From the NCBI RefSeq assembly GCF_003473485.1, contig NC_053042.1:40452762-40516761 (forward strand): 64,000 nt of DNA, given 5' to 3'. Both the position numbers and the translations under genes were made by a program. Positions within the stretch are counted from its first letter, which is position 1, and each line of letters opens with the position of its first letter. Below the pieces are notes generated by a model. The model ran no database searches and was not told where the DNA came from. It saw only the letters and a program-made list of their open reading frames with translations. This DNA comes from Medicago truncatula (lineage: Eukaryota > Streptophyta > Magnoliopsida > Fabales > Fabaceae). Below are positions 207 to 27,878 of the stretch, piece after piece.

Positions 207-2676
207 CACTCCAGCCGCATCTGTTTCTGTAGAATTTGAAGCAAATCGACTAACTTTCCAGCCTGAATTTGGTGATACAGGGGAACTGGATCCATCAGGC
301 ATTAGATCTTGATAATATTTAGACAGTGTTTTGTAGCCCATATCACTAAGATTGATCAGCCCAGAAGCTAAATGCTTGCTAGATTCCATAGCATATCGGG
401 CTACCAGGTTTCCGCTGCTTGGTGATGTTGATGGGCTGACAGCAGGAGGAGTCAGACTTTGAGGACTTAAGCGACTTGTGTTTAACAACAATGGGTTGTT
501 GGAGGCATAAGCTAACCACCGTGGCCCTACAGCCATCGGACCATAGCCAATATTAACCCCAACCATTCCTTGCCCACCCAACTGAGGCACAGGATAAGTG
601 AGAACACTGAATTTATTCTCAAGAGTAAGAGCATCAAAACAGTATATCTGCAAGCAAATTAAAAATCAAAACAACAAATTAGCCAGGTATAAGTTATGTC
701 AATAACAAACTAAGTCACTGTTCGTTACAATTTTATTTATGAAAAGAACATGTAAGTGATCCATTTGGCCTCATGAAGTATCAGTGTCCTGAAAACTTGT
801 TACACGTCTAAGCATATGTTTGAATATTTTAAATGAGGGAGCAAAGAGCTACCCAATGGAGGAAATTGGTAAAACCATACCAATGTTAACTGAACAATTA
901 TAAACTCAATTTTCTCAATAAGATAACATCGAAAAAATATAGGTGCTAAAAACAAATTGCAAATATACTTGACTCAAAAACTTACTTGAGTAGCAAGACC
1001 CACAGCGACTATTTGAGGACTGCATCTAACCATGTATACAGTTGAACGGAATCTTAGAGCATGAACATAGGTATGGGACCTCAGTGAGTAGAATCTAACA
1101 GTTGTAGCTGAGTTGATAATATTTTCAGCATGAGCTTCGTTGTGGCCATCTCTGACATTTTGCACCGTACCAGGTATCTTTGATTTATCACATGCAACAA
1201 CCAATAGTAAAGGATGTGATGCTCCAAATCCTTCACAGCCCTCTGATTTTGTAGGGACGGGCTGCATCTGTAAAAACGAAACTGGATCATCACGTTTTGA
1301 GACAAGTTCCCTGATATCAGAGGCATCTTCCACATCGAGAACTTGAAATCCATTGGAATAACCGAGTAGGAGTACACGTTTGAAAGAAGACAGATCGAGC
1401 TCTAGCCTATCAAAGCAAGCCCAAAGCACCTGCTTGACAAAAAATAGATGTCAATAATTCTGACATCTCAGTTCATAAAAAATAACTTCACCACAGTACT
1501 CTATTGCGCCAAAATACAAGTCCACTACTACAGTCTGGGGTCAGTAAAATATTTTGTAGCAGACATCACAACATAATAAATGCTTCTTAAGAGTACCACA
1601 TATGCAGTAATCTATTGCACCACATTGACAATTATATGACGTATCAATCAATCAACAATACTCTACTGTCATGCAATTCCACCTAATCTCACCCTTTGAT
1701 TTATCCACCAACTTTTTAAATAACTTACTTAACTCCCTAAAGAGGAGTTGGGTTGTCTAACAGCTTTATCATCAAAAAACCAGTCTCAAATTAGTTCTGG
1801 TCTAAAATAATAAGATGTATGGCCAATTATGAGACTTATAGAAATACTATATCATATATAGGTACTGCTTTTGTCGGAAAACACGAAGGTGGGAAATGAT
1901 AATACGATTCAAAACTGCCAACTGTCTTCACGCATCATTCGCACATCTATCTCTTCAAACCGAATAGCTTTTCCATACTCGATTGCCACACAGGTGCAAG
2001 TACTATTAAATATTAATTGTTGATTTGTTCATTAACCTTAGAGATTGCTTACTTTACTCTCTCAAGAGGAGTTGGATCCTTGTTTAACTACTCCATCATC
2101 ATCAAAGTAATCAATAGTATATCACATTAATTCTGGTCCGAAATAACCAAACAAATATTCTATTTTATTCTTAGAGAAATGAATATTGTTAATCAGAAAC
2201 AAGTGGATTACGTCTTCAACTTCATTCAATAATCCAAAATTAACCTAAATTAAATATTTAATTCAAAACATAAGAAATAACGATAAACTGATCATTTCAT
2301 ACAGTTCTCAATATGAACAACGTTTCTACAAAGGCGTTGTTACTTATTACTCAGAATTCAGAAACCTAGATTTAGCAAGTTTTCGCTAAACTAAAATTAT
2401 TCATCAAAATTCACGTGTATATCACTTCTCATTTCTAAACAGCATTCACAAGTCAAATTTAAAAAATGAACAACCAAAAAAAAAAAAATCAAAAAAAATA
2501 AATGCTACCTGATCTTTACGATCGGTTCCATCGCCGGAAATAGAAGCAGCGACGGAGGCGCCGGCAGTTCTGACGCCGGAGGAAGCCGTCTTAATGCAAG
2601 ACGAAATGAACTTGAAAGAAGAAGGAACGAATCCATTGCTCTTGGAACCGTTGTTGTTCTTTCCTTGCTTCTTCAT
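207..2676 (-). CDS. ATG18: ATG18g/h-type autophagy protein, 5' part (exons 1-3), continues past the left edge
   Basis: Three exons read leftwards: 2509-2676 (56 codons), 986-1429 (148 codons) and 207-647 (147 codons), all joined in phase 0 by GT-AG introns. The start MKKQGKNNNGSKSNGF at 2676 leads into a Ser/Ala-rich stretch ending DRKDQ, then VLWACFDRLEL and SNGFQVLDVEDA, as in plant ATG18g/h. Later come a long insert with SPVSPNSGW and the motif YGPMAVGPRWLAYA, typical of the BCAS3-like members of this group. Known role of the family: PROPPIN beta-propellers that bind phosphoinositides on forming autophagosomes. The FRRG/LRRG lipid-binding motif and the BCAS3 domain should lie beyond base 1, so they cannot be checked. 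The donor at 206 leads into an intron that appears to run off the window. Family assignment is firm; the choice between g and h is not. Confidence 0.9.
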
Positions 2677-20775: not shown

Positions 20776-21102
20776 AATATAGAATTACAATCCATTGCAT
20801 CTATCTCTTTTCTCTCTAAATCTTTCATTGCTTGCGTAATAAGAAAGTGTTGCGTTAACAAATTGGCATCTATAACCGCTGGTTTTGATCAAGGGGAACA
20901 CGAGAGAATGTGAGAGGACAAACGTATCTGAGTAACACAATCAAGTTGAGTGAACAAGAATAATTTATTGTAAGCAATCATGAATAGAAACAACAATTCA
21001 ATGTGAATCTTCCAATTAATTCTTGATGGAGGTAATTAGGAAAAATGTAGAGCATTGATGAAGACATTGTTTGGAGCATAAAAAGTGCAAGAAGTTGTGG
21101 AG

Positions 21103-23040
21103 TGTAACACCCCGTTATCCCAAAAGTAATTAAATATAAAATATTCATCAGAGTAATTCACCAAACGGGCATGCTACACTACATTTTCAAAATTTCTTAA
21201 ATAGAAAATAATACTATTTAATAAAACTTATTCATAAGCCAACATTAATTTGCAGCGGAATATTTTCAACATTAAAATCCATTTTCAACATTAATAACCA
21301 CAACATTCAACATAATAATTCTCCTATAGAAATCTTGGCATAAAAAGCCTCAACATTAAATCCAACAATCAAACAAAGGGCTACATCAGCATAATCCAAA
21401 AATGTGATACATAAGAAATGAAAACAATAAGAAATCCCATCCCGTACGTATCAGAGCCCTAAACACTTGAGCCACCACCTACTACTCAGGATCACCTGCA
21501 AGTGGTGAGATTCACAACAATAATTATAGATAATAAATTCATCAATTGAATCTAACACCCTATTAAACATCAATACATCATCTTGTAAATATAAATATAT
21601 GTTTCACAAAGCAACAACATCATCTTCAATATGGCAATGCAACCAACAACAAAGACTCATGCATGACATGAAGACACCACTAAGACCCCTCAATAAATGC
21701 AATTATGCATGTGGTACCAAAACAGGGCCGAAACCCTCACCGCTTTTGAATGGTTAAAGCATTCATCAGGACATAAGTCCTCACCGCTGTGAACAACAAG
21801 TGCTCCAGGACATGAGTCCTCCCGCTGTTTATGCATATGCAATGGACCCCCTTGTGTATATCTACATACAACTTGACCATGCATACATTTTCATATGACT
21901 CTGAGTTTATACAACATGTATGATTTAGTAAATACAACATACATTACAGCCATCAACAATATCATCAATCAGTAATCCAGCAATCCAGGAAGATGCACAA
22001 TTAATCACAATTAGGCCCAAACATCAACATCATTCAACAATAGTCAACACAGAATAAACATCTCTGATTCTGGGCTACTCGCCTCGCGAGCACTCCTACT
22101 CGCCATGGCGAGTACACAAAAAACGTCACTCGCTGAGGCGAACTCAAGGTGAGCTGGGAAAGGTTGCTCTCGGGAGTTTTGACATTTTTCTCACTAAAAC
22201 TTCAATTCTAAGCTCTCTATTCATCTTTTTAATCTAAAACTTGCTCCAGACCTCTCTAAAATCATATAGGTACCCAAAACTATCCTCCTAATACCTTATA
22301 ACAACAATTCAAAAAAAAAAATCATGTTTTATACTGGGTTACTCGCCACGGCGAGTTGTTCTGCTCGCGAGGCGAGCCATGAAGTTTCTCACTCGCCTTG
22401 GCGAATAAGGCTACTCGCGAGGCGAGCGATGAACTTCTGTACGGGCAGAATGCAGGTTTTTCCCAAAAATCCCATTTTTCTTCAATTCACTCCCCAAATT
22501 AATTTACAGATGCAAAACTAAGTGCTGTCTACAACCAGAACCTAATTCTAACATTAGAATATCAATTTCACACTCTAAACTCAACAATTTCATCATAACC
22601 CAAAATTCCCAATTCTACCATAACTCTGTTAAATCAAAATCAGAACTTAGAATCTATACTACTGAAGCAAACCTCACCCTTACCTTAATTCAGAAGCACA
22701 AATGCACAGCAATTCGGATTCCCTTGGTTCTACTTGCTCTTCTCTCCCTTTTTCTCCCAACTTGACTGTTTTCACGTAAACTGCTTTCTGACTTCTCTTT
22801 TCCTAACTCCCCTGTACTTAACTCCCTCTATTTTCACTTAACTCCCTATTAATTCTAATAAATTCTAATTAACTCCCCAACCCCCAAAATAATAATTATT
22901 TCTCACCTAATTAAATTAATATCAAAACCAACCATATAATAAAATATATCACACCACATAACATCACAAATATTATTTAAAATCACATATAAGACTCTAA
23001 ATGAATTAAAATAAATAAATATATCGACTAGGGCGTTACA
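21103..23040. mobile_element. Solo LTR, probably Ty3/Gypsy type, inside the Copia fossil
   Basis: It begins tgtaacaccccg and ends gggcgttaca, the inverted TG...CA ends of an LTR. It is 1,938 bp long with no internal coding region, and copia gag text continues on both sides. The flanking pentamers tggag (21098-21102) and tgtag (23041-23045) differ at one base and fit a 5-bp target duplication. The gypsy assignment rests on length and terminal sequence only. Confidence 0.7.
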
Positions 23041-24299: not shown

Positions 24300-25581
24300 T
24301 TCAGTGCCTAGTTGATTCAAACAATTTTGAGAAAATCTCAAAAGTAACAAGATCCAAGGAAGGTTGTGATAAACTTGAGAACTATCATGAAGGAGGGAAC
24401 AAAGTTAAACAAATAAAGCTTCAATTTCTCATAAAAAAGTATGAATTGATGCTTATGGAGGAAAATCATAAAGTAGCTGACTACTTCTCAAGATTAATCA
24501 CTGTGGTGAATCAAATGAAAATTTATGGTGAAGCAATTGCTGAGCAATAAGTTGTTGAAAGGTAATGAGGACCTTGTCTCTAAGATTTGATTTCATAGTT
24601 GTTGTCATTCAAGAATCAAAGGATGTGAAAACTATGAAGATTGAAGAATTGCAAATTTATTTTTAAGCAAATGAGCTTATGGTGATTGAAAGATGAACGA
24701 AAGGCCAGTTAAACAAGCCTTCAAGCTCAAACTATCGAGAAGGATAATAATGACAAGAAGAATGGCAAATATAACTTCAAAGGGGGAACTTGTCAAACTT
24801 CAAAGGAAATAGCAAGATTGACAATAAAGTTGAATCTTAAAGGAGATGAGGTTTGGGCAACAATCAAGGAAAGAAGAAATATTTTGATAAAAGGAAGCTG
24901 CAATGTTATAACTGTGAAAAATATGGTCACTATTCATATGACGATGGTATGGAAAAGGTATACAAGTCAAGAAAGATGACGAGGAGGCTAAAATGGCACA
25001 AGAAGACTTAGACTATAATCATGTACTCTTAATAATGACAACAACCAATACTAAAAGTTTCAATTCAGAAAGATGGTTTTTAGGTTTTTGATTGTTCTAA
25101 TCTCATGACAGGAAATAGAAAATGAATGAAAGAAATTGATACCATTAAAACCACAAAAGTGCAGCTAGTTGATCATAGAACGCTAACAACAAAACAATGG
25201 GAAAGTTTGTAATTAAATTATAAAATTGCAAGATAGTTGTGATAGAAGACGTGTTGTATGTGCTTGGAATGCAATGCAGTCTATTAAGTATATGTTTGGA
25301 ATCCCGACTAGTTGAAAATTCTCGCGTTACGAGATGTTTTCACCGTGAAAATTGAGAAGCTACAAAAAGTAGCATCACTGCAAAAGCGCTTTTTTCTCAT
25401 CCCCACCGATCTAACAAACACACTATAAATGTCGAACAACTCGTACCAAAAGGTTATTATCTAATAAGGAAAAATAACTCTCTAGAACTTTTTGATAGAA
25501 CTCAAAGGTTAGTGTTAAAATATCATCTTGCAAAGAATATAACCTTTCAAGCTAGCATGATGACTGAAGAGATGAGATGTA

Positions 25582-25721
25582 CTCCCTTCCGTCATATTTA
25601 TAAGCAAAAAACAACTTTTTATTTACAATTAACGTATCTGACTTATAAATGTGATTGAATACATTAATTATTCAATGTAGTTAAAAAATTGTTTTTTACT
25701 TATAAATATGACCGGAGGAAG
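25582..25721. mobile_element. Stowaway MITE
   Basis: 140 bp with ends ctcccttccgtcatattta and, read on the other strand, cttcctccggtcatattta. A TA dinucleotide flanks each side (25580-25581 and 25722-25723), as for Tc1/mariner MITEs. Copia-like sequence continues on both sides. Confidence 0.8.
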
Positions 25722-25925
25722 TACGCTAATAACAATGAATAAAGAAGATAGTTGGCTTTGACACTATATGTTTGGCCTTTTAAATTTCAAAAGTCTTATT
25801 CAATTAGTTGAAAAAGAATTGATACTAAAATAGTCTTTGTGGTTTGCTTAATTGGTAAGCAACCAAGGAAATATGGAATTCGTTCCGTTCACATACAAAT
25901 CATAGATCTATGGATGCATTACACG

Positions 25926-26377
25926 CAGTGGCGGAGCTAGAAATTTTGCAGAGCCGGTTAAAATCCCTACAGGACCTCTTTTTTTGAATAATAAAAATAT
26001 TTTTAATACAATAGAAAATAAAAAAGGAGTGTTACCACGGATCGAACCCAAGCCATAGAGGGATCAGGTAGCGCGCTTAACCACTACAACACAATGTAAC
26101 ATAACATATGATATGTTATGGGGACCTCTTTTTTTGAATAATAAAAATATTTTTAATACAATAGAAAATAAAAAAGGAGTGTTACCACGGATCGAACCCA
26201 AGCCATAGCGGGATCAGGTAGCGCGCTTAACCACTACAACACAATGTAACATAACATATGATATGTTATGGATAATATGATAATTATAGGCACGTTGAGG
26301 ACTGTTGTGACACCTATGGATCTCCTACGAGATCCGGGGCGTGTGCCCAGGCTAGCTGGGTGGTAAAACCGCCCCTG
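25926..26377. mobile_element. hAT-type MITE
   Basis: 452 bp. The left end cagtggcggagc and the right end accgcccctg are imperfect inverted repeats starting CA and ending TG. The 8-bp direct repeat attacacg flanks it exactly (25918-25925 and 26378-26385), the length used by hAT transposases. Inside lies a 150-bp direct duplication described separately. No coding capacity. Confidence 0.8.
25972..26271 (-). repeat. Two 150-bp tandem units with tRNA-like Pol III signals
   Basis: Copies 25972-26121 and 26122-26271 differ at only one base that I can find (26059 a, 26209 c). On the minus strand each unit holds a box-A-like TAGTGGTTAAGCGCG (near 26070-26090 and 26220-26240), a perfect B-box GGGTTCGATCC (26039-26049 and 26189-26199) and then TTTTTT (26020-26025 and 26170-26175). 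That is the order of a tRNA-derived SINE promoter with a Pol III stop. Whether it is transcribed is not known. Confidence 0.8.
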
Positions 26378-26385
26378 ATTACACG

Positions 26386-26913
26386 TAATTCACTGTGATG
26401 CATGTTGTCTTCTTTAGATTTGTTCATTAAAAGGAAACAAATATTTCATCACATTTATACATAAATATAACAAAAATATAACTATTTAAATTTTAAATTA
26501 AATACATCTTTTTTTTTTTTTAATAGAAGATGAAAGAGTATGCGTTTTATCATGTGCATGCGTCATAGGACAATGTAATGTAATGCACACTTTATTGGAA
26601 GGGTAGGTTGTTTGAATTTGAAAAGCAGCATACATAATAGTGGAACCGGATTAAGATAATAATATTCAAGATGGAATACATTATTTCTGCTCGCTTACAC
26701 ATTACAGCTGCCGCCGCGGCTTGACCAGAATCATTTCTCAAAATCTTTTCCCATACATCAGAAACTGGATTCTACAAACTGTTACCAACATAACAAAAAA
26801 CTATAAATCGAGTAAAGCAAAACAACAATTCAAAAATGAAAGCAAATTAGCAATACCAACATAACAAGAAGCTGATTAGAAATTAGAAATTAGAATTTAG
26901 AATCAGAATCAAT
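26386..26913. other. Promoter and 5' UTR region of the phosphoglycerate-mutase-like gene
   Basis: AT-rich with a T-run near 26510-26521. GC-richer sequence from about 26700 (gctgccgccgcggcttgac) is likely 5' UTR. No TATA box assigned. Confidence 0.4.
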
Positions 26914-27878
26914 ATGGGTGTCCTTCCAAAGAGGATAATACTAATGCGTCACGGCGAGTCCCAAGGAAACCTTGACACGTCAGCATACACCACCACACCA
27001 GACCACAGCATTCAGTTAACTCCATCCGGCATCGCCCAAGCCCGCCACGCCGGCGCCAATCTCCACCGTCTCGTTTCCGGCCAAGGCTGCTCCCCTGACT
27101 GGCGTCTCTACTTCTACGTCTCTCCTTACGCCCGTACCCGATCCACACTCCGTGAAGTCGGTAGATCTTTCTCCAAGAAGCGCGTGATCGGCGTCCGAGA
27201 AGAGTCGCGTGTAAGGGAACAGGATTTTGGTAACTTCCAAGTTCAAGAGCGTATGAAGATTGTTAAAGAAACTCGTGAACGGTTTGGGAGATTCTTTTAT
27301 CGCTTTCCTGAAGGTGAATCCGCCGCCGATGTTTTCGATCGCATTTCCGGTAACTGCTAACTGCTTTTCCCTTCTCTTTAAATTATTCAGATACATCATA
27401 TTGATATCAATTTGAATTTATTTTTATTTTTTAAGGTTTTTTTGAATCTTTATGGAGAGACATTGATTTGAATCGTCTTCATCACGATCCAACAAACGAT
27501 TTAAATCTGGTGATAGTATCACACGGATTGACATCACGAATTTTCTTGATGAAGTGGTTCAAGTGGACGGTGGAGCAATTTGAGCATCTAAACAATTTCG
27601 GAAACTGCGAGTTTCGTGTGATGGAGCAAGGGAGTGGTGGAGAATACAGTTTGGCGATTAATCATACGGAGGAAGAGATGCTCGAATGGGGAATGTCTCC
27701 TGATATGATTGCTGATCAGAAATGGCGTGCAGATGCGCCTAGAGGTGCTTGGAATGATCAATGTCCTTGGTATCTTGATGGTTTTTTTGATCGTTTTGAT
27801 GCATCTGAATCTGATGATGACACTGAAGCAATCCAAAATGAAGGTGAAACTGAAATGAAAGTTGAAGCTAATAAGTAA
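26914..27878 (+). CDS. Phosphoglycerate-mutase-like (histidine phosphatase) protein, AT74-type
   Basis: Two exons, 26914-27349 and 27436-27878, split after the first base of a Gly codon, give 292 aa. The catalytic RHGES is at residues 12-16 (His13), after the beta-strand PKRIILM. SPYARTRST supplies the conserved arginines, VREQDFGNFQ the acidic residue region, and VIVSHGLTSR the second catalytic His at 175. The C-terminal part with MLEWGMSPDMIADQKWRA and CPWYLDGFFDRF matches the plant AT74/AT74H group. The branch-1 histidine phosphatase fold is certain; the true substrate is not known for these plant members, and glycolytic mutase activity should not be assumed. The tail is acidic. Confidence 0.92.

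What the first reader, a model, noticed from the sequence alone, without database searches (positions are those of the whole stretch)
25918..26385. hAT MITE containing a fresh tandem duplication of a tRNA-like Pol III unit
The element has CA...TG ends and an exact 8-bp target duplication. Inside are two 150-bp units differing by one base. Each has on the minus strand a box-A-like word, a perfect B-box and a T6 stop in tRNA order. A DNA transposon that carries an amplified SINE-like promoter is unusual; it may have captured a SINE or may express short RNAs of roughly 70-110 nt.
Basis: partly seen in the sequence, partly recalled or inferred. Interest (0 to 1): 0.7.

Follow-up and report, generated by a model that had tools for sequence, protein, structure and literature searches.

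The report
Jumping DNA carrying paired tRNA-like promoters
A short "jumping" DNA element in a plant-sized genome belongs to a family that carries two tRNA-gene-like promoters facing each other, and this copy has lost one of them and recently doubled the other; the promoter words have been kept while the DNA around them changed, which suggests they may matter to the element.

Summary
The element is 25926-26377, with an exact 8-bp target duplication and two 150-bp units that differ at one base (26059). Each unit has, on the minus strand, an A-box-like word, a perfect B box 44 nt on, and T6 13 nt after that. The interpretation needs changing.

(1) The tRNA-like unit is a family trait. Of 41 loci (window copy included), 28 match profiles of two CONVERGENT units, one per strand, some only in part. 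Here the left (+) unit is reduced to a mutated B box and a T-run, and the right (-) unit is duplicated. A genome pattern found no other hAT copy with this tandem.
(2) Between diverged copies the box columns outlast the spacer (strongly in the right unit, modestly in the left), and the A-to-B distance mostly stays at 44 nt.
(3) The units look like decayed tRNA genes (nearest of those compared: tRNA-Lys(UUU)) rather than a SINE. No cloverleaf or conserved fold remains.
(4) The element is a composite: outer hAT ends around an inner hAT MITE core that carries the pair.

Best reading: a hAT MITE lineage keeping a convergent pair of TFIIIC/Pol III-type promoters. No RNA data; no autonomous partner identified.

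The parts
25926..26377 (.). hAT-type MITE (composite), 452 bp between the target duplications
25918..25925 (.). target-site duplication ATTACACG, left copy
26378..26385 (.). target-site duplication ATTACACG, right copy
25926..25934 (+). left terminal inverted repeat CAGTGGCGG
   Evidence: shared by sisters
26369..26377 (-). right terminal inverted repeat (CAGGGGCGG on the minus strand), 8 of 9 with the left
25956..25966 (+). remnant of the family's left (+ strand) tRNA-like unit: B box GGTTAAAATCC with the key C changed to A; its A box lies in a deletion of about 0.1 kb relative to sister L009
25979..25985 (+). T7, terminator-like run of the left unit (copied again at 26129-26135 by the duplication)
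25972..26121 (-). unit 1 of the 150-bp tandem duplication; tRNA-like part on the minus strand
26081..26091 (-). unit 1 A-box-like word TGTTGTAGTGG
   Evidence: same word as unit 2
26039..26047 (-). unit 1 B box GTTCGATCC
26020..26025 (-). unit 1 T6 stop
26122..26271 (-). unit 2 of the tandem duplication
26231..26241 (-). unit 2 A-box-like word
26189..26197 (-). unit 2 B box GTTCGATCC
26170..26175 (-). unit 2 T6 stop
26329..26336 (.). GAGATCCG: truncated right end of the inner hAT MITE (intact as ..GATCCGCCACTG in the inner-only subfamily), where the outer element's right end follows
   Evidence: read

Best explanation
The element is a non-autonomous hAT-type transposon (MITE) of a family whose core carries two convergent, tRNA-gene-like Pol III promoter units: one on the + strand at the left, one on the - strand at the right. 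Each has an A box, a B box about 44 nt later and a T-run usually 7-17 nt after the B box, at the edge of the short A/T-rich middle. Shown by sequence: the pair exists in several diverged subfamilies; its promoter positions outlast the surrounding sequence; copies have hAT-type ends and 8-bp target duplications. Also shown: in the window copy the left unit was reduced to a remnant by a deletion and the right unit was duplicated in tandem recently (1 difference in 150), an arrangement found in no other hAT copy. Inferred: the units descend from tRNA genes (the right one closest to tRNA-Lys(UUU) of those compared) inside an ancestral hAT element. Inferred: they still bind TFIIIC and may be transcribed into RNAs of roughly 80 nt. 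Inferred: this was kept because an open, TFIIIC-bound core keeps the element accessible to a hAT transposase, or away from silencing. The tandem duplication itself is most simply a local replication or repair error.
For: Sister loci with homologous ends and single right units: (44 matches). Both unit profiles hit 28 of 41 loci examined (3 left only, 5 right only, 5 neither; partial hits and the window's own remnant are counted). TSD of at least 7 of 8 in 26 of 42 loci, ends allowed to slide by 1-2 bases, including the subfamily L056-L060, L106, L113, all seven 8 of 8. Right unit, 28 rows (of 33 loci hit; 5 partial ones left out): box columns 0.843 mean identity between diverged pairs against 0.550 elsewhere, 0 of 20000 column permutations; the B box is the best 11-column window of 69, the A box fourth. 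Left unit, 19 rows (of 31 loci hit; 12 others, mostly partial or remnant, left out): 0.733 against 0.607, 689 of 20000, 1 of 90 shifts. Left unit: fixed consensus positions 0.87, degenerate positions 0.61, A-B spacer 0.56. Its R columns hold only A/G and its Y column only C/T. Spacer of exactly 33 nt in 15 of 19 left and 24 of 28 right units. Genome pattern: 16 convergent B-box pairs (12 of them this family) against 1 in divergent order. Right-unit consensus against tRNA-Lys(UUU): score 32 against a shuffle mean of about 14.6, 0 of 100 shuffles; the same 44-nt spacing in five tRNA-Lys sequences. Tandem same-strand B boxes genome-wide: two places, this element and a tandem pair of tRNA-Lys genes, with 1 hit of the reversed control.
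Against: No RNA or chromatin data. Rfam tRNA matches none of 38 family loci scanned at E up to 10, almost no base pairs are predicted in the alignments (4 and 3, one with a two-sided change), and four predicted transcripts fold no better than shuffles. The right A box lacks the consensus G at its third place in all 27 copies that have the column, and its B box has T for C in 10 of 28, as expected from CpG decay. The left-unit signal is modest: its A box ranks only 32 of 81 windows. Two of 28 right units have no T4 or longer after the B box (L020, L024). The left A box has two mismatches in L062 and L067. The subfamilies are few (about five) and related, and the alignments were anchored on the boxes. 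The hAT assignment rests on ends and target duplications; the transposase was not identified.
Confidence: 0.6

Rival explanations
1. The tRNA-like pair is a passive relic: tRNA-derived sequence trapped in an ancestral hAT MITE, inherited by its descendants without function; the present similarity is only shared descent.
For: No cloverleaf, no conserved RNA fold; many copies have a damaged B box or lack one unit; the window copy persists without its left unit.
Against: Boxes and their spacing outlast the spacer and flanks in the right unit (0 of 20000 permutations), and the left unit varies mainly at degenerate consensus positions.
Confidence: 0.27
2. The conserved words are transposase-binding subterminal repeats of a hAT element that merely resemble A and B boxes; CAGTGG recurs in the end repeat, in both A boxes and near the right end.
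For: CAGTGGCGG ends, GCAGTGGT in both units of several copies and GCAGTGGCACC near the right end.
Against: Does not account for the B boxes, the T-runs, the 44-nt spacing equal to tRNA-Lys genes, or the R/Y pattern of variation.
Confidence: 0.08
3. A SINE (or an inverted pair of SINEs) inserted into a hAT MITE.
For: A and B boxes in tRNA order.
Against: A T-run close after the B box and no SINE body or tail. I did not search systematically for target duplications around the units, and no SINE library was at hand, so a short decayed SINE head cannot be excluded.
Confidence: 0.05

Closest known systems
hAT MITEs (non-autonomous hAT elements; plant Tip100-like ends by recall)
   Same: CAGKGGCGG ends, exact 8-bp target duplications, a few hundred bp (too short for a transposase), many copies, nested composites.
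   Different: The core carries two convergent tRNA-type promoter units kept across subfamilies; this I did not find described in nine paper searches.
Plant SINEs (tRNA-derived; Pol III A and B boxes, mostly an A tail, per passages of PMC9033089 seen)
   Same: Internal A and B boxes without a cloverleaf.
   Different: Moves as a DNA transposon with inverted ends and an 8-bp duplication; the unit ends at a T-run soon after the B box; no body or tail seen.
Nuclear tRNA genes, nearest of those compared tRNA-Lys(UUU)
   Same: A-to-B distance 44 nt, identical B box GTTCGATCC, CGTGGGTTCGATCC shared with the right-unit consensus; a T-run soon after the B box.
   Different: No cloverleaf, no Rfam tRNA match.
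MITEs carrying internal tandem repeats (recalled for a Xenopus MITE; not looked up)
   Same: Tandem duplication inside a MITE.
   Different: Here a single two-copy duplication of a Pol III-like unit, in one copy of the family by the pattern.

Membership tests
hAT non-autonomous transposon / MITE | 8-bp target-site duplication | tested here: met
   ATTACACG exact in the window; at least 7 of 8 in 26 of 42 other loci (L012 and L014 share one insertion site inside a larger repeat; L073 lies in a G run; 9 of 42 had no pair of ends and 7 had 4-6 of 8)
hAT non-autonomous transposon / MITE | Short terminal inverted repeats of hAT type (CAGKGGCGG by recall) | tested here: met
   8 of 9 bases between the ends in the window; same ends in sisters
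hAT non-autonomous transposon / MITE | An autonomous hAT partner with matching ends | tested here: inconclusive
SINE | tRNA-derived head with A and B boxes | tested here: met
   (right A box with one mismatch)
SINE | Retrotransposed structure: no inverted ends, body after the head, A-rich or simple tail, duplications of variable length | tested here: not met
tRNA gene | Cloverleaf / match to the tRNA covariance model | tested here: not met
   no RF00005 match at E up to 10 in 38 family loci or in window 25000-27500; Rfam scans do find the real tRNA genes of L116 and the window's tRNA-Ser at 59.6 bits
Type 2 Pol III promoter (A box, B box, T-run) | Consensus boxes at tRNA spacing followed by a T-run | tested here: met
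   the right A box misses one consensus position
Type 2 Pol III promoter (A box, B box, T-run) | TFIIIC binding and Pol III transcription | not testable with these tools
   no RNA or chromatin data held

The most novel reading that the evidence does not exclude
A lineage of hAT DNA transposons has kept a pair of convergent Pol III promoters as a working part: TFIIIC/Pol III binding at the core keeps the element open or insulated, and so helps it to be mobilised or to escape silencing. The window copy is a natural variant with the left promoter lost and the right one doubled.
Probability: 0.33. Interest if true: 0.75.

Novelty: new variant of a known kind. Interest (0 to 1): 0.5.

Why it matters
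Pol III promoters in mobile DNA are expected in retroposons (SINEs), not in cut-and-paste transposons. A DNA transposon family that keeps two convergent tRNA-type promoters would link class II elements to TFIIIC-bound chromatin (boundaries, open sites). It would also give a natural series for testing whether a bound Pol III promoter helps a transposon to survive: two units, one unit, none, or a doubled unit.

Tried and rejected
Captured SINE in this copy: rejected as the main reading, because sisters at other sites with their own target duplications already carry the unit.

A conserved structured RNA: rejected. RNAalifold found 4 and 3 pairs, one of them with a two-sided change, and four predicted transcripts fold like shuffles (z between -0.14 and 0.76).

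Left and right units as copies of each other: weak. L against R scores 23 against a shuffle mean of 14.5 (1 of 300 shuffles reaches it), the match being only the B box and T-run. They may be two different tRNA-derived units; the left consensus scored best with a tRNA-Ile (29, 0 of 100 shuffles). In one search the ARAGORN sequences were parsed with a few extra letters; this does not touch the box distances.

L020 (1433 bp) as an autonomous relative: not supported. By reading, its extra length is an insertion, its frames were listed but not searched against a family library, and its two units look fused by a deletion.

Of the 16 convergent pairs, 12 are this family, L116 is a real tRNA-Ser/tRNA-Asn pair, and L111, L117 and L118 look more distant and were not placed by ends and duplications.

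The exact spacing depends on the method: exactly 44 in 15 of 19 left and 22 of 28 right units by best fit, against a 33-nt spacer in 15 of 19 and 24 of 28 by alignment columns.

Papers: nine searches. I saw search listings, and passages of PMC2374699 (which says that D. [quoted passage not shown] I found no description of a hAT MITE with tRNA-type promoter pairs; subscription papers and repeat libraries were not searched.

Names from recall and from no call: Medicago truncatula as the likely species (430 Mb, eight large contigs), Tip100-like ends, DUF4371 as a hAT domain, the hAT end motif, and the A- and B-box consensus strings.

Full report
The element. Window 25926-26377 is bounded by CAGTGGCGG and CCGCCCCTG and by an exact 8-bp duplication, ATTACACG. 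Two 150-bp units, 25972-26121 and 26122-26271, differ at one base, 26059. On the minus strand each has TGTTGTAGTGG, then GTTCGATCC 44 nt downstream (start to start), then T6 13 nt after the B box. An A+B+T-run scan of both strands of the 64-kb window found three places, these two and the real tRNA-Ser, against 0.35 on average in 20 Markov versions.

The family. The genome (430 Mb in 42 contigs; likely Medicago truncatula by recall) holds many relatives: 44 matches to the whole element, a lower bound. I fetched 40 regions around matches. Aligned sisters have one right unit, not two, and most carry an additional tRNA-like unit on the + strand to its left, e.g. TGGTGCAGTGG .. GTTCAAATC .. T8 in L009; L022 and L025 lack it. 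In the window copy that left unit is gone except for a B box with the key C changed to A (25956-25966) and its T7; the left-unit model still finds this remnant (25952-25990, E 6.9e-8). Profiles of the two units hit 28 of 41 loci with both, 3 left only, 5 right only, 5 neither; hits in part and the window's own remnant are counted. No other tandem was found: a genome pattern for two same-strand right B boxes 125-155 bases apart gave two places, this element and a tandem pair of tRNA-Lys genes, with one hit of the reversed control. The pattern needs intact boxes, so decayed tandems would be missed.

Composite build. The subfamily L056-L060, L106, L113 is a 340-372 bp MITE with ends CAGTGGCGGATC .. 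GATCCGCCACTG (L060 truncated at the left) and 8 of 8 target duplications in all seven copies. L065, L067 and L068 show such an inner element lying inside an outer MITE with ends like CAGTGGCGGAGCCAG .. GGTAAAACCGCCCCTG. The window element has the outer ends with a truncated inner right end (GAGATCCG, 26329-26336). So the Pol III-like pair belongs to the inner element, and the window copy descends from a nested composite; this step is my reading of the alignments.

Are the boxes kept? Counts use 28 right rows (of 33 loci hit) and 19 left rows (of 31), the rest being mostly partial. Between diverged copies (pairwise difference above 0.25), right-unit box columns have mean identity 0.843 against 0.550 for the rest; 0 of 20000 column permutations and 0 of 78 shifts reach this, and the B box is the best and the A box the fourth of 69 windows. 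Left-unit boxes have 0.733 against 0.607, 689 of 20000 permutations and 1 of 90 shifts; the B box ranks 7 of 81 and the A box only 32 of 81. In the left unit the fixed consensus positions have 0.87 identity, the degenerate ones 0.61, the A-B spacer 0.56. The R columns hold only A and G, the Y column only C and T. In the right unit fixed (0.88) and degenerate (0.82) positions hardly differ, against 0.58 for the spacer. The spacer is exactly 33 nt in 15 of 19 left and 24 of 28 right units, although elsewhere indels are common. Against: the right A box lacks the consensus G at its third place in all 27 copies with that column, and the right B box has T for C in 10 of 28; the subfamilies are few and related.

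Genome-wide order. The convergent pattern GGTTCRANTCC-N(50-80)-GGATYRAACC occurs 16 times, the divergent order once, reversed controls 0. Of the 16, 12 are this family, one is a genuine tRNA-Ser/tRNA-Asn pair (L116) and three are more distant and not placed. A relaxed pattern with an A box gave 18 places against 1 in the reversed control, letters not shown.

Origin. Against 25 distinct tRNA sequences recovered by ARAGORN from the 30 tRNA loci fetched, the window and L116, the right-unit consensus is closest to tRNA-Lys(UUU): score 32 against a shuffle mean near 14.6, 0 of 100 shuffles, the same 44-nt A-to-B distance, and CGTGGGTTCGATCC shared. Not all tRNA kinds were in that set, and no SINE library was available. 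None of 38 family loci scanned matches the Rfam tRNA model at E up to 10, while the control L116 shows both its tRNA genes. No fold is conserved, and four transcripts fold like shuffles. The units keep promoter geometry, not RNA structure.

Mechanism. Shown: mobility traces, anatomy, conservation. Inferred: TFIIIC binding and possibly Pol III transcripts of roughly 80 nt ending in the T-runs; a benefit to the element through accessible or insulated chromatin. The passive-relic reading remains a serious rival.

Verdict. A real, family-wide trait of a known kind of element, for which I found no description (nine paper searches, limited to an open-access library). The window copy is one damaged and locally duplicated member.

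Noticed in passing
window 25579-25724: A hairpin-like stretch just left of the element matches several plant miRNA families (MIR6224, MIR2593 and others) below their gathering scores; probably another MITE of the kind from which such miRNA entries were made.
   Followed up: no
window 21098-21184 (-): Match to MIR2617 above the gathering score (102.7 bits).
   Followed up: no
L070, about 536-664 (minus strand): Another family copy with its left half in two tandem copies (nhmmer hits 579-536 and 664-621): local tandem duplication within these MITEs is not confined to the window copy, though of another part.
   Followed up: partly
G000 contig 3, 54238020-54240189 (minus strand): An inner-type left end and a Pol III-like unit lie about 2 kb apart on the same strand; a possible longer relative or a nested insertion, not read.
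   Followed up: no
L012 and L014: These two copies share target duplication and flanks (86.7% over a 1,049-column alignment), so one insertion was multiplied inside a larger repeat.
   Followed up: partly
G000 contig 2:36358143-36358207 and contig 3:50042950-50043014: Two more A+B+T-run units of a different sequence family, found by the pattern and not placed.
   Followed up: no
L020: A 1433-bp copy in which left and right units look fused by a deletion and about 1 kb of unrelated DNA is inserted, still with an 8 of 8 target duplication.
   Followed up: partly
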